NCBI GenBank assembly: GCA_027013225.1 | Contig: JALUXU010000005.1 | Location: forward strand, 35,915-99,914 | Origin: Acidihalobacter sp. | GTDB lineage: Bacteria > Pseudomonadota > Gammaproteobacteria > DSM-5130 > Acidihalobacteraceae | DNA: 64,000 nucleotides | Direction: 5' to 3' | Shown: positions 2,372 to 47,644 of the stretch, in pieces | Layout of the letters: every line of letters starts with the position of its first letter | How positions within the stretch are numbered: the first letter of the stretch is position 1 | Position numbers and translations under genes: made by a program | Notes under the pieces: model-generated | Databases searched by the model: none | What the model was told of the DNA's origin: nothing | The model's input: only the letters and a program-made list of their open reading frames with translations

Positions 2372-3235
2372 TTAGGAAACCCAGCTGTTAACGAGCTTGG
2401 GGTGCGCCTTGATCCATTTTTCAACGGCAACCTTCACCGGCGTGCCGTTCTTGACTTCGAGCATCAGCGCGGAGAGCTGCTGGCGCGGAATCTCGAAGCG
2501 GTTGAAGAACCAGAACACCTGCTCCGACTTGTGGTACAGCTCGGGGTTGACTACGTTCTGGATATAACCGCCGGTGCCGTATATGTGCTTGGGGTCTTTC
2601 AGGAACTTGATGTCGAACTTGGCCCACATCCACATCGGCGTCCATGCGGTGACGGCGATCCACTGCTTGTTCTTGATCGCCCGCTGCAGCTGCGCGGTCA
2701 TGGCGGCGGTAGAGCTGGTTTGCAGATGGAAGCTCTTCAGTCCGTAGGCCTTGATGGCTTTCTTGGTGTTCATGTTGATGCCGGCACCGGCGCCTACGCC
2801 AACGATACGGTCGTTAAATTTGGCGGCGTATTTTTCTAGCCCGGCAATGGTGTTGACCGGTACGTACTTGGGCACGGCGATGCCCAGTTTGGTGCCCATG
2901 ACGTTGGGCCCCATCAGGATCACCTTGTTCCAGACTTTCTGGTAATAGAATTTATGAGTGGTGGGGAGCCAAGCCGTGAGCATGGCATCGGTATGTCCGC
3001 TGGCCACGGCTTCCCACATGGGGCCGGCGGCGGAGGCGACCATGTCCACGGAATTGCCCAGCCGCTGTTTGATCACGGTGGCGGCCAGGGTGGTGGTGAT
3101 AACGCTGGACGGCCAGCTCTGTACATAACCGATTTTGATAGCCGGCTTGTCGCCTGCATACGCGCTCGACAACGCGCCCACGGAAAGGCCGGCGGCTGCC
3201 AGCAGAGTAATGGCGATGCGTTTAAATTTTTTCAT
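2372..3235 (-). CDS. proX: Glycine betaine/choline-type ABC transporter substrate-binding protein (OpuAC/ProX-like)
   Basis: MKKFKRIAITLLAAAGLSVGALSSAYA signal peptide; KPAIKIGYVQSWPSSVITTTLAATVIKQRLG; adjacent to matching permease and ATPase. Confidence 0.85.
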   Translation of the reverse strand: MKKFKRIAITLLAAAGLSVGALSSAYAGDKPAIKIGYVQSWPSSVITTTLAATVIKQRLGNSVDMVASAAGPMWEAVASGHTDAMLTAWLPTTHKFYYQKVWNKVILMGPNVMGTKLGIAVPKYVPVNTIAGLEKYAAKFNDRIVGVGAGAGINMNTKKAIKAYGLKSFHLQTSSTAAMTAQLQRAIKNKQWIAVTAWTPMWMWAKFDIKFLKDPKHIYGTGGYIQNVVNPELYHKSEQVFWFFNRFEIPRQQLSALMLEVKNGTPVKVAVEKWIKAHPKLVNSWVS

Positions 3236-3236
3236 T

Positions 3237-4100
3237 TCATAGGCTCCTTTTCTTTTTGCCAATTGCTTGAGTAAGGCGATCGAGAATGATCGCCAGGATA
3301 ACGACGGCTAGGCCGCCAACGAACCCCTTCCCCACGTCGAGCTGGGTGATCCCTTCGAGGACGACGTTCCCTAGGCCCCCGGCGCCGATCATGGCGGCGA
3401 TGACCACCATGGATAGGCTGAGCATGATCGACTGGTTGACGCCGGCCATGATCGAGGGCAAGGCGTTCGGCAGCTGGATCTTGATCAGCATTTGCCACCA
3501 GGTGGCGCCGAAGGCATTGCCCGCCTCCACCAGTTCGGCGGGTACCTGACGTATCCCCAGAGTGGTCAGGCGGATCAGGGGGGGAAGAGCGAAAATCACG
3601 GTGGAAATGGCACCCGGAACGAGGCCTAGACCGAAAAAAATGACGGCCGGCACCAGGTACACGAAGGCCGGCATGGTCTGCATGACATCGAGAATCGGCC
3701 GCAGGATGCGATCTGCGATCTCGCTGCGCCCGCCGAGGATGCCGAGCGGTAATCCCAGCACGATGACCATGATTTCTGAAGCCAGGACCAGCGCCAGGGT
3801 GTCGATCAAAGCGATCCAGTACCCGAGGTTGAGCACCAACAACAGGCCTAGAATGCTAAACAGGGCCAGTCCCCAGGCGCCTTTGCGGCGCCAGCCGAGC
3901 AGGGAGACGGCAAGTACCGCCACCAGGGCGATGAACAGCAGCGGGGGGATGGCGAGCAGGCCGTTGCGCAGGCTGGCGATCAAAAAATGCACGCCGGCGG
4001 TGATGGCATTGAAGGCCGAGGCATAGTTGTTGGTCAGGGCGTTGACCCCGTTGCTGACCCATTGGCCGATGGGCAAGGGGGAGCCGAGTTGATAACTCAT
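3237..4100 (-). CDS. proW: Glycine betaine/proline ABC transporter permease (ProW/OpuAB-like)
   Basis: MSYQLGSPLPIGQWVSNGVNALTNNYASAF...; permease EAA region PPLIRLTTLGIRQVPAELVEAGNAFGATWWQMLIKIQLPNALPSIMAG. Confidence 0.88.
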   Translation of the reverse strand: MSYQLGSPLPIGQWVSNGVNALTNNYASAFNAITAGVHFLIASLRNGLLAIPPLLFIALVAVLAVSLLGWRRKGAWGLALFSILGLLLVLNLGYWIALIDTLALVLASEIMVIVLGLPLGILGGRSEIADRILRPILDVMQTMPAFVYLVPAVIFFGLGLVPGAISTVIFALPPLIRLTTLGIRQVPAELVEAGNAFGATWWQMLIKIQLPNALPSIMAGVNQSIMLSLSMVVIAAMIGAGGLGNVVLEGITQLDVGKGFVGGLAVVILAIILDRLTQAIGKKKRSL

Positions 4101-4113
4101 GGCGACAGTTTCC

Positions 4114-5355
4114 TCAGGCCTGTTGTGCTTGTGGCGCCGATGGCTGGTCGGGGGCGTCTTCCTCACTCGGCATTTGCGCCAGGGCGGCGAGCAGCGTGCT
4201 TTTGTCGACGATGCCAATGACGCGCTCTTTGGCGTCCAGAATCACCACCGGCGAGCCCTGTTCGGTGACCAGGCCGATCAGTTCGCCGAGCTTGGTTTCC
4301 GGGGTCGCGGTTGGCAAGGTGTGCAAACTATCCGGATCGAGGCGTTTGCGATCGCGTTGGCTGATGACGCTGTCGAGGCCGATATAGCCATGCAGGCGGC
4401 GCGCACTGTCGACGACGACCAGTCCGCCGAAGCCGCTGCGCTCCATTTTGAGCAGCAAGGTGCACGACGCATCCTGGGGATGGGCCGTGACCGTCGGGTG
4501 CCGCATGATCTGGCTGGCGGTGAGCACCTGGGTGCGGTCCGCGCCTTCGACGAAGGCGGAAACGTAGTCGTCTGCCGGCTGGGCGATGATTTCTTCCGGC
4601 GTGCCAACCTGAATCAGCCTGCCGTTGCGCATGATCGCGATCCGGCCGCCCAGTTTCAGCGCTTCATCCAGGTCGTGGGACACGAACACGATGGTCTTTC
4701 CCAGCCGGTCCTGGATTTCCAGCAGGTCGTCCTGCAATTGGCTGCGTATCAAGGGATCGAGCGCGCTGAATGCCTCGTCCATGAGCAGGATTTCTGGGTC
4801 CACGGCCAGCGCGCGCGCCAGGCCGACCCGTTGCTGCATGCCCCCGGACAGTTCGGCCGCAAAACTGGATTCATAGCCGCCAAGGCCTACGGTGTCGATG
4901 ACTTCCTGCGCGCGCTGTTGCCGCTGTGCCTTGGGCACGCCCTGGATTTCCAGCCCGAATTCCACGTTGCCCATGACCGTGCGATGCGGCAACAGGGCGA
5001 AGTTCTGGAAGACCATCCCGAACTTGCGCCGGCGCAGTTCGCGCAAGGGCTTGGTGGGCAGGCGGGTAATGTCTTGGCCGTCAATGTAAACCTTGCCGGC
5101 ATTGGGCTGGTGCAGACGATTGATCAGGCGCAACAGGGTCGATTTGCCGCTGCCGGACAGCCCCATGATAACGAAGATCTCCCCGCTCATGATTTCCAGG
5201 GAGACATCGAACACGCCGACCGTCGCCGCGTACTGACGCTGCACCTCGGTCTTGCTCAGACCGCGGCTCAGGGCCTCCATGGCGCGCTCGGCCTGGCGGC
5301 CGAAGACTTTGCTGACATTTTCGAGGCGTATTCTGGCTCCGGGTTCTGAAGTCAC
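4114..5355 (-). CDS. proV: Glycine betaine/proline ABC transporter ATP-binding protein with C-terminal CBS domains (ProV/OpuAA-like)
   Basis: Walker A GLSGSGKST, signature LSGGMQQRVGLARAL, Walker B ILLMDEAFSALDP, C-terminal CBS-like region. Confidence 0.92.
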   Translation of the reverse strand: MTSEPGARIRLENVSKVFGRQAERAMEALSRGLSKTEVQRQYAATVGVFDVSLEIMSGEIFVIMGLSGSGKSTLLRLINRLHQPNAGKVYIDGQDITRLPTKPLRELRRRKFGMVFQNFALLPHRTVMGNVEFGLEIQGVPKAQRQQRAQEVIDTVGLGGYESSFAAELSGGMQQRVGLARALAVDPEILLMDEAFSALDPLIRSQLQDDLLEIQDRLGKTIVFVSHDLDEALKLGGRIAIMRNGRLIQVGTPEEIIAQPADDYVSAFVEGADRTQVLTASQIMRHPTVTAHPQDASCTLLLKMERSGFGGLVVVDSARRLHGYIGLDSVISQRDRKRLDPDSLHTLPTATPETKLGELIGLVTEQGSPVVILDAKERVIGIVDKSTLLAALAQMPSEEDAPDQPSAPQAQQA

Positions 5356-33173: not shown

Positions 33174-34391
33174 ATGTCAAACGCCTCCACAGCAAATCCC
33201 GATATCGATCTTGAAGAACGCGATAAGCGGCGTTGGATGCTCGCTTCGACCGGCTTCAACAGTGCGCTCGGCCTGGCCAAGTTCGCCTGGGCCTGGTGGA
33301 GCGGCAGCCTGATCGTGATGGCCGACGCCGTGCACAGCCTGTCCGACGTCATCGGCGCCTTGCTGGTGTATGCCGCCGTCCGCTTTTCCACCCACCGTTC
33401 GGCCCGCTTTCCTCTTGGGCTGCACAAACTCGAGGACATGGCCGCAGTGCTCAGTGGCCTGGCCGTGCTCGCGGCGGCTTATGAGATCCTGCGCAGTGCA
33501 TTCGGTACCGGCCATGCGCCAGCGGCCATGCCATTTTTGACCAGTGGCTTCATTGCCGTCCTCCTGCTGCTGCAAATCGGGTTCTATCTGGCCGAAAAAA
33601 AGGCGGCGGATCGCCTGGGCTCACCCGGCCTGCGCAGTGATGCGGTCAACTGGCTGGGCGATATCGGCGCGGGCGTGGTGGTCATCGTCGGCGTCATCGC
33701 GCACGGCCTGGGGATCCCGTATGCACAGCAAGTGGCGGTCGGCATCATCGTGCTGCTGATTCTGCATGGCGCCTGGGAGGTGCTTCGCGACGGCCTGCTG
33801 TCCCTGCTCGACGCGGCGGCTCTGGGTGATGAACGCGAGCAGGTCATGCAGCTATTCGAGCATCATCCCGGCATACAGACCGTGCGCGACGTGATTCTGC
33901 GCCGCGCCGGCAGCGCGCTGTTTCTGGCCGCCACGGTCGAGGTCTTGCCGACCGGCCTGAAAGCCGCCCATGAGGTGATCGACCAGCTCGAAACGGCGCT
34001 CAGAGCGAAGCTTCCGCGGCTGGAAACCATCGCCATTCATTTCGAGCCGGCCACTCAAATGCGCCACCGCCGGGTGAGCCTGTACGAAGAAGATAGACGC
34101 ACCCTGGCCAGGCGTTTTGGACAAGCTGCCTGGCTTATGCTCGAGGAAAAAACCGCCGATGGCAGCACACCACAGCAGGTATGGATCGCCAATCCATACC
34201 GGGAAGCCGCGCGCGGCAAGGGCATCAAACTGGCCGCCTGGCTGATCCGCTTGAATGCCGAACGGGTACGCTTCGCGGCTGATACGCCGCTCGACCCAGC
34301 CCTGGCCGAATTGCTGGAAAGCGCCGGGATTGCCCTGGATGTTGAAGTGAATACAGAAGATCAGCATACAGGATTGTCGAAAGGCGGCTAA
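33174..34391 (+). CDS. Cation diffusion facilitator transporter with C-terminal NifX/dinitrogenase-cofactor-like domain
   Basis: CDF core MADAVHSLSDVIGALLVYAAVRFSTHRSARFPLGLHKLEDMAAVLSGLAV; C-terminal ~95 aa YEEDRRTLARRFGQAAWLMLEE...NPYREAARGKGIKLAAWLIRLNAERVRFAADTPLDPALAELLESAGIALDV resembles NifX-type domains. Confidence 0.85.
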   Translation: MSNASTANPDIDLEERDKRRWMLASTGFNSALGLAKFAWAWWSGSLIVMADAVHSLSDVIGALLVYAAVRFSTHRSARFPLGLHKLEDMAAVLSGLAVLAAAYEILRSAFGTGHAPAAMPFLTSGFIAVLLLLQIGFYLAEKKAADRLGSPGLRSDAVNWLGDIGAGVVVIVGVIAHGLGIPYAQQVAVGIIVLLILHGAWEVLRDGLLSLLDAAALGDEREQVMQLFEHHPGIQTVRDVILRRAGSALFLAATVEVLPTGLKAAHEVIDQLETALRAKLPRLETIAIHFEPATQMRHRRVSLYEEDRRTLARRFGQAAWLMLEEKTADGSTPQQVWIANPYREAARGKGIKLAAWLIRLNAERVRFAADTPLDPALAELLESAGIALDVEVNTEDQHTGLSKGG

Positions 34392-36173: not shown

Positions 36174-37241
36174 GCGGATTCAACTTTCAAGTGCAACTCT
36201 GACTGATGGTTGAGGGCAAGCGGCGGTAGCATCGTAGCTTCTCCAACCGCCAAGCAAGAGGAGTACGATGAGGCACTATACGCAGCTTACCCAGGAGGAA
36301 CGATACCAGATTCACGCGCTTATGAAAGCCGACCACAGCCTTTCCGAGATTGCTCGAATCCTGGGACGATCGAAGTCCACGATCGGTCGTGAGCTTCGGC
36401 GCAACAAAGGGTTGCGTGGTTATCATCCGAAGCAGGCGCACCGATTGGCTCTGGAGCGACGCCAGGCGAAGTACGCGCCACGCATCCCGGAGGAGACCTG
36501 GCAATGGGTCGAGCGCCTTCTGCGCGAGGACTGGCGCCCTGAGCAGATCAGCCGCTGGCTGGCGCGGGAGAAGCGGCGCCGTGTCAGTCACGAGCGGATC
36601 TACCGGCACATTCTTCAGGACAAGCGTGCCGGGGCGACCTGCACTCGCCTCTGCGTTGCCAAAAGCCTCGCAGGAAGCGCTACGGGGCTTATGACCGTCG
36701 AGGCAGGATCCCGAATCAGAAATCGATCGAGGAGCGCCCGGCCATCGTGGAGCGCCGCAGCCGCATCGGAGACTGGGAACTGGATACGATCATCGGCAAG
36801 GGCCACTCGGGCGTGCTGGTCTCGGTGGTGGAGAGGAAATCCAGACTGACCCTGCTGGCGAAGGTGCCCAACTAGACGGCCCGGTCCGTGCGTCAGGCGA
36901 TCCTTGATCTGCTGGGCCCTGTGGAGGATCGTGTCCATACACTGACCGCTGACAATGGAAAGGAATTCGCGCATCACGAAGCCATTGCGCAGGCGCTTTC
37001 TGCCGGGTTCTGCTTCGCCCACCCCTATGCCTCCTGGGAACGGGGGCTGAATGAGAACACCAATGGTTTGGTACGGCTGTACTTCCCCAAGGACAGGGAC
37101 TTTTCCACCATCACCGATGAAGAAGTGCAAATGGTTATGAACAGGCTCAACAACCGACCCAGGAAATGCCTTTGCATGAAAACACCGAATCAGGTATTTT
37201 TTGGCATAAAACCACCCGTTGCACTAGCAAGTTGAATCCGC
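36174..37241 (+). mobile_element. IS30-family insertion sequence, degenerate
   Basis: Terminal repeats: left GCGGATTCAACTTTCAAGTGCAAC, right (reverse complement) GCGGATTCAACTTGCTAGTGCAAC; encloses an IS30 transposase. Confidence 0.88.
36268..37235 (+). pseudogene. IS30-family transposase, frameshifted and with an internal stop
   Basis: Frame A MRHYTQLTQEERYQIHALMKADHSLSEIARILGRSKSTIGRELRRN...RIYRHILQDKRAG; continues in another frame DLHSPLRCQKPRRKRYGAYDRRGRIPNQKSIEERPAIVERRSRIGDWELDTIIGKGHSGVLVSVVERKSRLTLLAKVPN*TARSVRQ...NENTNGLVRLYFPKDRDF. Confidence 0.92.
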
Positions 37242-42137: not shown

Positions 42138-43058
42138 CTATAGCCGACAGGCGTCCAAAGGGCAAGGATGAGCCGAATCACCGCGTTCCAGCTGTAAGGT
42201 GACATGAGTGATGCCAAAACGGCTCTTGAGTTCTTCAGCCAAATTCGTGAGTAGCGCATCATCGATTACTCCATCCGGTTTGACCAGATGGGCGGTGAGT
42301 GCTGTTTGCGTGGTGCTGGTGGCCCAGATGTGCAGATCGTGAACTTCCTCTATGCCGGGCGCGTTTCGCAACAATTCCAGCACCGCGGCGGTGTCGATGT
42401 CGGGCGGCACCGCATCGAGAATCAGGTTGAACGAGTCGCGCAGCAATCCCCAGGTGCTGTAGACGATCACGCCCACGATGAGCAGCCCGATCAGGGGATC
42501 GAGCCGATCCCAGCCCGTGAACAGGACGATGACGCCGGAGACGACCACGCCCAGGGAAACGCCGGCGTCGGCGGCCATGTGCAGAAAGGCGCCGCGGATG
42601 TTGAGGTCGTGCTGGCCGCGCATGAAAAGCAGCGCGGTGGCGGTGTTGACCGCGATCCCGATCGCCGCCACCCAGATGACCGTCGTTTCGTTTACGGGGG
42701 CGGGATGCAGCAGGCGGCCGACGGCTTCCCAGGCGATGCCGCCGCTGACGCCGATCAGCAGCAGCGCGTTGATCAGCGAGGCCAGCTGGGTACTGCGTCT
42801 GAGGCCATAGGTGCGCCGCGCGGTGGGGTGGACTTCGGTCAGGCGCATGGCGCCCCAGGCAAGTAGCAGCGCGAACACGTCGCTTAAGTTGTGGCCGGCG
42901 TCGGCCAGCAGGGCGAGTGAGCCGGCCCAGAACCCGAACAGCGCCTCAACGGCCACGAAGGCGGTGTTGAGCGCGACGCCGATGGCAAAAGCGCGTGAGA
43001 AGCTGTCCGGCGGCGGATGGACGTGACCATGGCCGTGCTCGTGATGGGCGGCGTGCAT
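42138..43058 (-). CDS. Cation diffusion facilitator transporter (CzcD/ZitB-like) with His-rich N-terminus
   Basis: MHAAHHEHGHGHVHPPPDSFSRAFAIG; LLADAGHNLSDVFALLLAWGAMRL; HMAADAGVSLGVVVSGVIVLFTGWDRLDPLIGLLI. Confidence 0.93.
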   Translation of the reverse strand: MHAAHHEHGHGHVHPPPDSFSRAFAIGVALNTAFVAVEALFGFWAGSLALLADAGHNLSDVFALLLAWGAMRLTEVHPTARRTYGLRRSTQLASLINALLLIGVSGGIAWEAVGRLLHPAPVNETTVIWVAAIGIAVNTATALLFMRGQHDLNIRGAFLHMAADAGVSLGVVVSGVIVLFTGWDRLDPLIGLLIVGVIVYSTWGLLRDSFNLILDAVPPDIDTAAVLELLRNAPGIEEVHDLHIWATSTTQTALTAHLVKPDGVIDDALLTNLAEELKSRFGITHVTLQLERGDSAHPCPLDACRL

Positions 43059-43063
43059 GGGGC

Positions 43064-44338
43064 TCAGACCTGGTCCAGGGCGATGCGCGCGGCCACTGTA
43101 GCCAGCTCGCTCAGGGTCGGGTTGGCCGGCGCGCTGTGCGCGAGGTGTTCCAGGCCGGCGCCGGCGGCGATGGCGGCGGCGACCGGGGCCAGGGCGTCGG
43201 CGGCGTGCGCACCCACCACCCAGGCGCCCCGCACGCGGCCTTGCGTGTCCCAGGCGAGGGTGAATTCGCCGGCCGGTTCCAGCAGATGCGCCTTCAGGGT
43301 GAGGTCCAGGGGGACCGCCAAGCTGCGGATGCCTTCGCCCGTCACGCGGCCGACCTGCGCCACTTCGGGCTGCGAGTAGACCGCATGCACGATGAGTTCT
43401 GGGTTCACAGGCGCGGTGGGCAGGCCCAGGGCGTGGCGCGCGGCGATGCGGGCCTGCAGCAGGGCGCGGTTGGCCAGAAACGGCTCGCCGGCGGCGTCGC
43501 CCACCACATACAGGCCCGGCATGGCCTGGCCGTAGCCGTCGAGCCGCGGTGGCGTATCCAGACCCAGCGATTCCAGGCCCTGGGCGCTCAGGTCGGGGTG
43601 GCGGCCAGTGGCGACGAACACCAGATCGGCTTCGTGGCGGCCGCCGTTTTCGTCGATCACGGTCGCGCCGTCATCGCGCCGCTCTATGTCGCAGGTATAC
43701 ACGCTATCGACCAGATGCACGCCGCGCGCGGACAGCGCCTGCCGCAGGCCGTCGGCGGCGGGGCGCGCGAATTCGGGCAGCACGCCGCTGCGCCCAGGCA
43801 GCCAGGTGACGGCGCAGCCCAGTGCATTGAACAGGTAGGCGGTTTCGGAACCGGTGGCGCCGCCGCCGATGACCACGACGCGCGCCGGCAGCCAGTCCAG
43901 CCGGGCGAGCAGGCGCGGCGCGATGACGCGCTTGCCGTCGGGCTTGAGCTCGGGCCTGAAGCTCGGCTCCGAGCCGCTGGCGAGGATGACCGCGTTGGCG
44001 TCGAGGGTCTTGGCCTGCCCCTCGACCTCGATCACGCCGGGTCCGGCCAGCCGCCCCCGCGCCTGTATGCAGGTGACGCCGGCCTGGTCCAACAGGCGGG
44101 ACTGCACGGCGATCCACGCGCGGGCCACGCCCTGCAGACGGGCCAGGATCGCGGCCGGCTCGATGCCGCGCCGCGCCTTGCTCAGCCACACCTTGCTGGG
44201 CAGCAGGCTGCCATGGGCGGCGCGTCCGCCGAGCGGGCCTTCGTGCACCACAGTGACGCGGGCGCCGGCGCGGGCGGCGGTCAGGGCGGCTTCGATGCCG
44301 GCGGGGCCGGCGCCCAGTACGATCAAGCGTTTTTCCAT
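43064..44338 (-). CDS. Dihydrolipoamide dehydrogenase-like FAD/NAD oxidoreductase lacking the redox-active cysteines
   Basis: LIVLGAGPAGIEAALTAARAGARVTVV; PLGGRAAHGSLLPSKVWL where CxxxxC is expected; VVVIGGGATGSETAYLFNALG; LYVVGDAAG; C-terminal NPTLSE where HPTxxE is expected. Confidence 0.85.
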   Translation of the reverse strand: MEKRLIVLGAGPAGIEAALTAARAGARVTVVHEGPLGGRAAHGSLLPSKVWLSKARRGIEPAAILARLQGVARAWIAVQSRLLDQAGVTCIQARGRLAGPGVIEVEGQAKTLDANAVILASGSEPSFRPELKPDGKRVIAPRLLARLDWLPARVVVIGGGATGSETAYLFNALGCAVTWLPGRSGVLPEFARPAADGLRQALSARGVHLVDSVYTCDIERRDDGATVIDENGGRHEADLVFVATGRHPDLSAQGLESLGLDTPPRLDGYGQAMPGLYVVGDAAGEPFLANRALLQARIAARHALGLPTAPVNPELIVHAVYSQPEVAQVGRVTGEGIRSLAVPLDLTLKAHLLEPAGEFTLAWDTQGRVRGAWVVGAHAADALAPVAAAIAAGAGLEHLAHSAPANPTLSELATVAARIALDQV

Positions 44339-44377
44339 GTCGGGGTTCTCCTAGGTTGGGAACGGTTTACGAGACGC

Positions 44378-45706
44378 TCAGGCGGCGTGTTCGGCGCCGG
44401 GGTTTTCCAGGCTGAGCGTTTCGCTGTCGTCATCATAGGCAAAAATCTCGGCGTAGCGGCCCCAGTTGATGACCGCGTCCAGCACGCGCTCGGCTTCGCT
44501 TTCGCTCAGATGGTCTTCGAGCTCGCTCAAGAAACGGTCGAGCGGCGCGCGGTGATTGGGGCGTTCGTCTAGCACATGGCGGATGTGCGCGGCCAGTGGC
44601 ACGTGCTTGAGCAGCTGGCGGGCGAAGATTTGCTTGCGTTCCTGGGTGTCGCCGTCCACGAAACGCTGGCCTATGGGGGTGAGGCTGATCCAGCGTTCCT
44701 CGGCACGGGCCAGGTCGAGGATTTCCAGGGCTTCGACCAGGGGGAAGATGTCGTCTATGGACAACTGCATATCGTCGGCCAGCTCCGGCAGGCTGACGTC
44801 TTCTTCTTCGTCTGTTTCTTGGCGCTGGGCGATGGCCTCGAGCAGGCCGGCCAGGCGGTTGATGGCCGCGCTGGGCACGCGCCAGGCGAAGCCGTCGGCG
44901 CGCCGCGTGGGGGGCATTTCCTGACGGCGGGTCATGATGGCGTAGATCTGGTCCACCAGGGCGCGAAACTCCGGCGCCTCGCGGTTGCGCGGCTGGGCGA
45001 GCCGCACCGGAATCTCGGCGGCCACCCGCCCGGGGTTGGAGGCGAAGATGACGATGCGGTCCGCCATCAGCACGGCTTCTTCTATGTTGTGGGACACGAG
45101 CAGCAAGCCGCGCAGCGAGGTGGAACGTTCTTCCCACAGATCGAGCAGATCGGTGCGCAGGTTTTCGGCGGTGAGCACGTCCAGTGCGGAGAAGGCTTCG
45201 TCCATCAGCAGCACGTCGGGGTCGATCACCAGCGCGCGGGCGAAACCCACGCGCTGGCGCATGCCGCCGGACAGTTCGCGCGGATAGGCCGATTCGAAGC
45301 CGTCCAGGCCGATGAGGTCGATGGCGGCCAGGGCCCGCCGCTGCCGCTCGTCCCTGGGCGCGCCTCGGGCCTCCAGTCCCAGTTCCACGTTTTCCAGCAC
45401 CGTGAGCCAGGGGAACAGGGCGAAGCTTTGGAACACCATGGCCATGCCGGGCACCGGGCCCGTCACCGGCCGTTCGCGATAGCTGACTTCGCCGGCGCTG
45501 GCTTCGATCAGGCCGGCCATGATGCGCAACAGCGTGGATTTGCCTGAACCCGAGCGCCCCAGCATGACAAGGATCTCGCCTTCGTACAGCGAAAGATCGA
45601 CGCCGTCTATGATCTTGAGCGGTTCGCCGTCGGGAGTGCGGAAGGTTTTTTGCACCCCGCGCAGGCGGATGATTTCGGTGCGGCCAAAGTCCGTGATCGT
45701 TTTCAT
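44378..45706 (-). CDS. NitT/TauT-type ABC transporter ATP-binding protein with C-terminal AAA-associated domain
   Basis: Walker A GRSGSGKSTLLRIMAGL, LSGGMRQRVGFARALVIDPDVLLMDEAFSALD; long C-terminal extension after residue ~260. Start set at MKTITDFGRTEIIRL. Confidence 0.92.
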   Translation of the reverse strand: MKTITDFGRTEIIRLRGVQKTFRTPDGEPLKIIDGVDLSLYEGEILVMLGRSGSGKSTLLRIMAGLIEASAGEVSYRERPVTGPVPGMAMVFQSFALFPWLTVLENVELGLEARGAPRDERQRRALAAIDLIGLDGFESAYPRELSGGMRQRVGFARALVIDPDVLLMDEAFSALDVLTAENLRTDLLDLWEERSTSLRGLLLVSHNIEEAVLMADRIVIFASNPGRVAAEIPVRLAQPRNREAPEFRALVDQIYAIMTRRQEMPPTRRADGFAWRVPSAAINRLAGLLEAIAQRQETDEEEDVSLPELADDMQLSIDDIFPLVEALEILDLARAEERWISLTPIGQRFVDGDTQERKQIFARQLLKHVPLAAHIRHVLDERPNHRAPLDRFLSELEDHLSESEAERVLDAVINWGRYAEIFAYDDDSETLSLENPGAEHAA

Positions 45707-45732
45707 GGGCGGGTCTCGGAGTCGAGGCGGCG

Positions 45733-47454
45733 TCAGTCCAGACGCCAGCGGGTTTCGGCGAAGCGGTACAGGCGATGCCAGAAGAAGCGGTTGATGAGGA
45801 TGACATACAGCGACATGACGCCGACGCCCAGCGCGACCTTGTGCATCTGGCCGTGGGCAGTGGCCTCGGTGATGTAGGCGCCAAGGCCGGTGGCGATGAG
45901 GGTGTGGCTGCCCCAGCTCACTACTTCGGCGACGATGCTGGCATTCCAGGCGCCGCCCGAGGCGGTGATGGCGCCGGTGACGTAGGACTGGAACACTGCG
46001 GGCAGCAGCAGCCTGCGAAACCGCAGCCAGCCGCCGAGCCCGAGATTGCGCGCCGCCTCCTTGAGTTCCGTCGGGATGGCGGCCGCACCGCCGATCACGT
46101 TGAACAGGATATACCACTGGCTGCCGAGAATCATCAGCGGGCTGGTCCACACGTTGACGTCGAGATGATAACGAACGATCAGTACCACGACCAGCGGAAA
46201 CAGCAGATTGGCGGGGAATGCGGCCAGGAACTGGGCCAGGGGCTGCACCCGCCGCGCGAGGGCGGGGCGCAGACCTATCCATATGCCCACCGGCACCCAG
46301 ATCAAACTGGCGAGCAGTACCAGCACGAACACGCGGGCGGCGGTGATCAGTCCGTACAGGAACACCTGCCCTACGTCAGCCCAGCCGAAATCGGCGGGTA
46401 CCACCCGCCAGGCGGCGAGGGCGGCGGCCACGGCTGCGAGCAGGAACAGGCCGTTGACCAGATGATCCATGGCCGTCTGCGCACCGCCGGTGGGGCGGCG
46501 CGGGCGCGGCGGGCGCGACGCGAACAGGCGCAGGCTCAGTTCCCACACGGCGGCAGGCAGGGCGGCGGCGCGGCGCAGCAGGCGGGTGCGGCGCAAAAAA
46601 TCGAGCACCCGCGATTCGGGGCCGGGCTCGGCGGCGCTGGTGGCGTATTTGAACTTGTCCGCCCAGGCGACCAAGGGGCGGAACAGCAGGCTGTCGTAGA
46701 GCCAGATCACCACCAGCATGGTGAGGATCGCCCAGCCGATGGCGGCCAAATCACGGTCCTGTATCGCCAGCGCGATATAGGAACCCACGCCGGGCACCAT
46801 CACCTGGTGACCGCCCACGGTGATCGCCTCGGCGGCCACCACGAAGAACCAGCCGCCGGAAACCGACATCATGGTGTTCCAGATCAGCCCGGGCATGGCG
46901 AACGGCAGTTCCAGGCGCCAGAAGCGCTGCCAAGCGCCGAGCTGGTAGGCGGCGGCGGCCTCGTCGAGCTCGCGCGGCACGGTCTTGAGCGATTCGTACA
47001 GGCTGAAGGTCATGTTCCATGCCTGTGAGGTGAACACGGCGAAGATCACGGCCAGCTGCACGCCGATCAGGCTGCCCGGAAACAGGGCGATGAAACCGGT
47101 GACCGTGATCGTCAAGAAGCCGAGGATGGGCACCGACTGCAGCACGTCGAGGATCGGGATCAGGACGCGTTCGGCATAACGGTTCTTGGCCGCAAGGGTG
47201 GCGTAGCCCAGGGTGAACAGGATCGATAATATCAGCGCCGCGACCATGCGCAGCACCGTGTACAGGGCGTAGGCGGGCAGCGCGGCGGGATTCAGGCTCA
47301 GGGGCAGCGATTGACCGGGGTGGTAAGGGCCGCTCATGTGCTCCCCCGCCCAGGCGACGACGAACACCAGCCCCAGCACCAGTGGAAAGGCGACCAGGTC
47401 GCGCTGGTTGGGCAAGGGGAAGGAAATCAGCGGTTTCTTCTGAGACATCGGCAT
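45733..47454 (-). CDS. ABC transporter permease with two fused BPD_transp (MetI-like) domains
   Basis: Two permease cores: EAAAAYQLGAWQRFWRLELPFAMPGLIWN and EAARNLGLGGWLRFRRLLLPAVFQSYVTGAITASGGAWNASIVAE. Confidence 0.92.
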   Translation of the reverse strand: MPMSQKKPLISFPLPNQRDLVAFPLVLGLVFVVAWAGEHMSGPYHPGQSLPLSLNPAALPAYALYTVLRMVAALILSILFTLGYATLAAKNRYAERVLIPILDVLQSVPILGFLTITVTGFIALFPGSLIGVQLAVIFAVFTSQAWNMTFSLYESLKTVPRELDEAAAAYQLGAWQRFWRLELPFAMPGLIWNTMMSVSGGWFFVVAAEAITVGGHQVMVPGVGSYIALAIQDRDLAAIGWAILTMLVVIWLYDSLLFRPLVAWADKFKYATSAAEPGPESRVLDFLRRTRLLRRAAALPAAVWELSLRLFASRPPRPRRPTGGAQTAMDHLVNGLFLLAAVAAALAAWRVVPADFGWADVGQVFLYGLITAARVFVLVLLASLIWVPVGIWIGLRPALARRVQPLAQFLAAFPANLLFPLVVVLIVRYHLDVNVWTSPLMILGSQWYILFNVIGGAAAIPTELKEAARNLGLGGWLRFRRLLLPAVFQSYVTGAITASGGAWNASIVAEVVSWGSHTLIATGLGAYITEATAHGQMHKVALGVGVMSLYVILINRFFWHRLYRFAETRWRLD

Positions 47455-47644
47455 CCAGGCATTCGGGGCTAAGGGTAGGATGGCGCGTATTATTCCAGAG
47501 AGTGGCTTCAATGGGGTAATGAATTGGGGCAGTTTGACTCGATGACTAAAATCCTTTTTTTCAGAATGCCTTAAAGGTTTTCTAGTATAGAAAAACGCCG
47601 ATCTTGATTGGCCTTTTATCAAATCCCATCAATGGCCGGATAAG

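What the first reader, a model, noticed from the sequence alone, without database searches (positions are those of the whole stretch)
43064..44338. LPD-like flavoprotein missing both redox cysteines and the catalytic His
In dihydrolipoamide dehydrogenases and related disulfide oxidoreductases, GGTCxxxxCxPSK carries the redox disulfide and HPTxxE supplies the acid/base His. Here the sequence is GGRAAHGSLLPSK (both Cys replaced by A and L) and NPTLSE (His to Asn), while FAD and NAD Rossmann motifs (GAGPAGIEAA, GGGATGSETA, GDAAG) are intact. It should not do disulfide chemistry; it may be an NAD(P)H-flavin oxidase or diaphorase, a metal or quinone reductase, or a structural or regulatory flavoprotein. 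It sits between a CDF metal exporter and an orphan ABC importer, all on the minus strand.
Basis: partly seen in the sequence, partly recalled or inferred. Interest (0 to 1): 0.62.

Follow-up and report, generated by a model that had tools for sequence, protein, structure and literature searches.

The report
Cysteine-free relative of lipoamide dehydrogenase
This bacterial gene encodes an FAD enzyme shaped like lipoamide dehydrogenase that has lost the parts needed to handle disulfides. It most likely passes electrons from NAD(P)H to another acceptor such as a quinone, as a few known enzymes already do, and the curious part is a very divergent branch found so far in only two related acid-loving bacteria.

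Summary
CDS 43064-44338 (-), 424 aa, has Pyr_redox_2 and Pyr_redox_dim domains but GGRAAHGSLLPSK (Cys to Ala/Leu) and NPTLSE (His to Asn). The FAD motif, NAD(P) motif, flavin Lys49 and Glu165 remain.

It is not decay in one genome. The only close relative found (70% identity, congener, probably Acidihalobacter ferrooxydans) has the same losses (Ser/Leu, Asn), no cysteine anywhere is shared between the two, and dN/dS is 0.33.

The ABC permease-ATPase pair precedes the gene in both genomes. The CDF exporter does not: its orthologue lies 480 kb away in the congener. The sister genus has the ABC but no flavoprotein.

Cys-less members of this superfamily are already known: soluble transhydrogenases, Rv3303c LpdA and yeast Irc15p. 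Ten of 47 retrieved gammaproteobacterial homologues also lack both cysteines. The protein fails every curated family cut-off. Its tree position is unresolved among the LpdA, STH and LPD branches (long stem); the glutathione reductase branch is rejected.

Best reading: an NAD(P)H:acceptor (quinone-type) FAD oxidoreductase in which NAD(P)H-to-FAD hydride transfer is intact and the disulfide relay is absent. It is a new, genus-restricted variant of a known kind. Acceptor and role are unknown.

The parts
43064..44338 (-). Cys-less flavoprotein, 424 aa, Pyr_redox_2 + Pyr_redox_dim
   Evidence: AlphaFold model pLDDT 84.8, TM 0.88-0.91 to LPDs and to Rv3303c LpdA
44192..44230 (-). GGRAAHGSLLPSK (residues 37-49): position of the lost redox disulfide; Lys49 kept
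43106..43123 (-). NPTLSE (residues 406-411): catalytic His replaced by Asn, Glu411 kept
44378..45742 (-). ABC ATPase with C-terminal AAA_assoc_C domain (PF09821); conserved upstream neighbour
45733..47622 (-). Fused double permease (two BPD_transp_1 stretches) of the same ABC unit; longest ORF, true start may be internal
42138..43058 (-). CDF-family cation exporter, probably co-transcribed here but not a conserved neighbour

Best explanation
It is a homodimeric FAD enzyme of the flavoprotein disulfide reductase superfamily that has lost the disulfide half of the mechanism. NAD(P)H binds the second Rossmann domain and passes a hydride to FAD (Lys49/Glu165 kept). With no CxxxxC and no His-Glu base, reduced FAD hands its electrons directly to a non-thiol acceptor, most likely a quinone or another small oxidant, with O2 as a side acceptor. 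The residue losses are shown and the fold is predicted; the FAD and NAD(P)H half-reaction and the dimer are inferred from conserved residues and domains; the acceptor is inferred by analogy.
For: Domains; AlphaFold model with LPD fold, 1xdi LpdA second in the PDB by E-value; Lys49 and Glu165 invariant among 10 homologues and the nucleotide motifs kept; no conserved Cys in the orthologue pair; purifying selection, dN/dS 0.33; best tree joins it to Rv3303c-type LpdA at 91/90 support, and the Arthrobacter member of that clade also has Ala and Val at the two Cys positions. Rv3303c LpdA and Irc15p lack the dithiol centre and reduce quinones, not disulfides (PMC6296175).
Against: It is not a member of NF005883 (202 bits against a cut-off of 479; orthologue 183). 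Stem of about 2.2 changes per column; grouping with STH or LPD is not rejected (AU p 0.53 and 0.215). No acceptor evidence. The neighbours are transporters, not respiratory genes.
Confidence: 0.55

Rival explanations
1. A soluble NAD(P)+ transhydrogenase-like enzyme: NADPH reduces FAD, NAD+ re-oxidises it.
For: STHs also lack the disulfide and the catalytic His; grouping with STH fits as well as the best tree (AU p 0.53); Arg183 after the second-Rossmann strand aligns with Arg in SthA, and the Glu typical of NAD-specific LPDs is missing.
Against: STH keeps Thr at the second Cys position and Tyr for His, here Leu and Asn; E. coli C45A loses about 10-fold transhydrogenase activity (PMC9460512); 152 bits to the STH model against a cut-off of 465.
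Confidence: 0.17
2. A non-catalytic or regulatory flavoprotein that senses NAD(P)H or redox state for the adjacent ABC transporter.
For: ABC-flavoprotein adjacency kept in both genomes of the genus; higher dN/dS than its neighbours.
Against: Sister genus and other Gammaproteobacteria run the same ABC without it; hydride-transfer residues are kept.
Confidence: 0.13
3. A decaying LPD paralogue on the way to loss.
For: Losses at several catalytic positions; dN/dS twice that of the ATPase.
Against: Open frame, Shine-Dalgarno, same positions lost in two species 30% diverged, dN/dS well below 1, cofactor motifs intact.
Confidence: 0.05
4. A metal or metalloid reductase working with the CDF exporter.
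For: The genes are 5 nt apart here; MerA model gives 153 bits.
Against: CDF orthologue is 480 kb away in the congener; no cysteine pair for metal binding; MerA cut-off of 454 not reached.
Confidence: 0.06

Closest known systems
Rv3303c LpdA-type NAD(P)H-quinone dehydrogenase (NF005883, PDB 1xdi)
   Same: Fold; loss of the dithiol centre (A/C in Rv3303c, A/V in Arthrobacter) and of the catalytic His; a PDG..R..L..L..LP stretch before the second Rossmann motif; weak tree affinity
   Different: About 32% identity to the Rhodococcus and Arthrobacter members; 202 bits against a 479 cut-off; C-terminal Glu kept here, lost there; 424 aa against 459-467 in the two members compared
Soluble transhydrogenase SthA/UdhA (NF003585)
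   Same: Cys-poor active site, His replaced, FAD and NAD(P) domains, Arg at the NADP-side position
   Different: STH has C/S/A-xxxx-T and Tyr in most members; here A/S-xxxx-L and Asn; 152 bits against a 465 cut-off
Dihydrolipoamide dehydrogenase (TIGR01350)
   Same: Fold, Lys and Glu at the flavin, HPTxxE frame with Glu
   Different: Both redox Cys and the His absent; 200 bits against a 408.8 cut-off; the genome has its own canonical LPD on another contig (L003)
Yeast Irc15p
   Same: LPD-like with both Cys lost; quinone and diaphorase activity (PMC6296175)
   Different: Irc15p keeps the His-Glu pair and is a recent LPD1 duplicate

Membership tests
Flavoprotein disulfide reductase superfamily (fold) | FAD Rossmann + NAD(P) Rossmann + dimerisation domain | tested here: met
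   Pfam; model and Foldseek
Dihydrolipoamide dehydrogenase / disulfide reductase (function) | CxxxxC redox disulfide | tested here: not met
   A40 and L45; S and L in the orthologue
Dihydrolipoamide dehydrogenase / disulfide reductase (function) | HPxxxE His-Glu pair | tested here: not met
   N406 with E411; Asn in the orthologue
NF005883 NAD(P)H-quinone dehydrogenase (Rv3303c type) | Curated score cut-off of 479 bits | tested here: not met
   202.1 bits; orthologue 182.8
NF005883 NAD(P)H-quinone dehydrogenase (Rv3303c type) | Sister position in a tree | tested here: inconclusive
   91/90 but long stem; STH and LPD placements not rejected
NF005883 NAD(P)H-quinone dehydrogenase (Rv3303c type) | NAD(P)H-dependent quinone reduction | not testable with these tools
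   needs purified protein
Soluble transhydrogenase (NF003585) | CxxxxT (or S/A-xxxx-T) motif and YxxxxE | tested here: not met
   Leu at the Thr position, Asn at the Tyr position
Soluble transhydrogenase (NF003585) | Curated score cut-off of 465 bits | tested here: not met
   152 bits
Mercuric reductase | Score cut-off of 454 bits and the active-site disulfide | tested here: not met
   153.5 bits, no disulfide

The most novel reading that the evidence does not exclude
A new genus-restricted clade of disulfide-free LPD-like flavoproteins that works as a dedicated redox partner of an ABC importer with no adjacent binding protein, either reducing the imported solute or gating transport by NAD(P)H/FAD state.
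Probability: 0.1. Interest if true: 0.5.

Novelty: new variant of a known kind. Interest (0 to 1): 0.27.

Why it matters
It adds another, apparently independent and very divergent, case in which the disulfide reductase scaffold keeps NAD(P)H-to-FAD chemistry and discards the thiol relay. If it is a quinone or other reductase, it is a small tractable enzyme from an acidophilic iron/sulfur oxidiser. It also corrects the label 'dihydrolipoamide dehydrogenase' that automatic annotation would probably give it.

Tried and rejected
Scan of 84,980 genomes with two octapeptides gave only one remote LPD. Phylum sample of 399 genomes had no hit below 1e-45 apart from the window's own genome; class sample of 369 had none near orthologue score. 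Plasmid collection gave only about 30%-identity hits. AlphaFold without an alignment failed (pLDDT 40); it worked with ten rows. The CDF link was rejected. A conserved ABC-flavoprotein operon beyond the genus was rejected. Glutathione reductase origin was rejected (AU p 0.006). Viral contigs gave only ordinary Cys-containing relatives among the full-length hits aligned. No paper found on this protein.

Full report
What is there. The reading frame 43064-44338 on the minus strand encodes 424 aa, starts at ATG with AGGAG upstream, and lies 39 nt behind an ABC ATPase and 5 nt before a CDF exporter. Pfam finds Pyr_redox_2 (149 bits) and Pyr_redox_dim (30 bits). The redox-disulfide motif reads GGRAAHGSLLPSK and the C-terminal motif NPTLSE. 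Aligned to canonical enzymes, Cys1 is Ala40, Cys2 is Leu45, the catalytic His is Asn406 and its Glu partner (Glu411) is kept. The FAD GxGxxG, NAD(P) GxGxxG, GD motif, the Lys of PSK and the Glu of the second Rossmann helix are present. The Lys and Glu are invariant in a ten-sequence alignment; in this superfamily they sit at the flavin N5 (established knowledge).

Is it real and selected? In the one other genome of the genus (handle G001) there is a 70% identical orthologue with GGRSTYGSLLPSK and NPTLGE. The two share no conserved cysteine at any position, so no alternative dithiol centre is shared by them. Pairwise dN/dS is 0.33, against 0.16-0.23 for the ABC and CDF genes: purifying selection, somewhat looser than its neighbours. 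A disabled gene is unlikely.

Whose genome? G001 is one contig of 3,448,835 bases. The sister genus has genomes of 3.4 Mb (8 contigs), 3,363,634 bases plus a second contig, and 3,566,941 bases. These match the sizes of A. ferrooxydans DSM 14175 (3.45 Mb), A. prosperus DSM 5130 (3.36), DSM 14174 (3.36 plus a 162-kb plasmid) and F5 (3.57) in PMC6396713. I infer a close relative of Acidihalobacter ferrooxydans, an acidophilic iron/sulfur oxidiser; the identification rests on sizes only.

Distribution. Only the two genomes of this genus carry it among five genomes of the order. No other genome among 399 in the phylum sample reaches 1e-45, and 369 class genomes give nothing near orthologue score. 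An octapeptide scan of 84,980 genomes found only a remote, Cys-containing LPD. These searches are samples or pattern-limited, so a wider but rare distribution is possible.

Neighbourhood. The fused permease and AAA_assoc_C ATPase (PF09821) form a unit; the ATPase domain is found in 45 of 274 Gammaproteobacteria. The flavoprotein follows it only in this genus. In the sister genus the next gene is a Kup-like potassium transporter (my reading of the sequence), and in 14 other class members the downstream genes vary. The CDF next door is not a conserved partner: its orthologue (74%) is 480 kb away in G001. I found no adjacent binding-protein gene, so the importer substrate is unknown.

Composition. 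The gene is the most GC-rich stretch of its length in the window (73.6% against a mean of 58.7%, SD 4.0), inside a GC-rich island with the ABC genes. The orthologue is also above its surroundings (71.0 against 63.1%). This fits acquisition from a high-GC source before the two species split, but Ala-rich coding could contribute.

Relationships. Curated models rank NAD(P)H-quinone dehydrogenase (202 bits) and LPD (200 bits) about equal, with all the cut-offs unmet; for the orthologue LPD leads (204 against 183). The maximum-likelihood tree joins the pair to the Rv3303c LpdA clade with 91/90 support on a stem of 2.16 changes per column. The grouping survives removal of the motif columns (SH-aLRT 90). 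AU tests do not reject STH (p 0.53) or LPD (p 0.215) as partners but do reject glutathione reductases (p 0.006). An AlphaFold model from ten sequences (pLDDT 84.8, pTM 0.82) has the LPD fold, with 1xdi (LpdA) second in the PDB by E-value and sharing the highest identity, 30%, among the leading hits. The model was built with LPD-like rows, so the closeness to LPD structures is partly expected.

How it most likely works. By analogy with three characterised enzymes, the reductive half-reaction (NAD(P)H to FAD) should be intact and the oxidative half-reaction should bypass thiols. Irc15p lacks both cysteines, is reduced by NADH at 250 per second, does not act on disulfides, and reduces menadione, DCPIP and ferricyanide; LpdA lacks one Cys and the His-Glu pair and is a quinone reductase (PMC6296175). 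SthA (CxxxxT, Tyr for His) transfers hydride between nucleotides and leaks to O2, and its C45A variant leaks much more (PMC9460512). The Leu at the Thr position argues against an efficient transhydrogenase. Of the characterised options I favour a quinone-type acceptor. The missing Glu and the Arg183 in the second Rossmann domain would allow NADPH (inference).

How unusual is it? Ten of 47 gammaproteobacterial homologues fetched here lack both cysteines (STH types and their close relatives) and three more lack one. The loss itself is therefore ordinary within the superfamily. What is unusual is the divergence, the hydrophobic Leu at the second position, and the genus-level restriction. I rate it a new variant of a known kind with modest interest.

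Noticed in passing
window 42500-47600: GC-rich island (about 62-73% against 58.6% for the window) covering CDF, flavoprotein and ABC genes; the flavoprotein gene is the peak.
   Followed up: partly
window 36268-36849 (+); L091 12697-13737 (+): Apparent IS30-type transposase remnant in the window; a longer IS30-like ORF lies about 2.5 kb downstream of the flavoprotein in the congener (judged by eye, not scanned).
   Followed up: no
L012, L039, L040: A separate, well-supported Cys-less clade beside the transhydrogenases with GGAWVNTGTIPSK and FNLPSLS/FNVPTLS in place of the His motif, in several gammaproteobacterial families; function unclear.
   Followed up: partly
L111, L113, Rv3303c (1xdi): Within the actinobacterial LpdA-type clade the redox cysteines vary: C/C in Rhodococcus, A/C in Rv3303c, A/V in Arthrobacter, while His is Tyr throughout.
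   Followed up: yes
window 2372-5355 (-): Apparent osmoprotectant (glycine betaine type) ABC cluster, fitting a halotolerant host (read from sequence, not scanned).
   Followed up: no
window 33174-34391 (+): A second, more distant CDF-family exporter (405 aa) in the same window.
   Followed up: no
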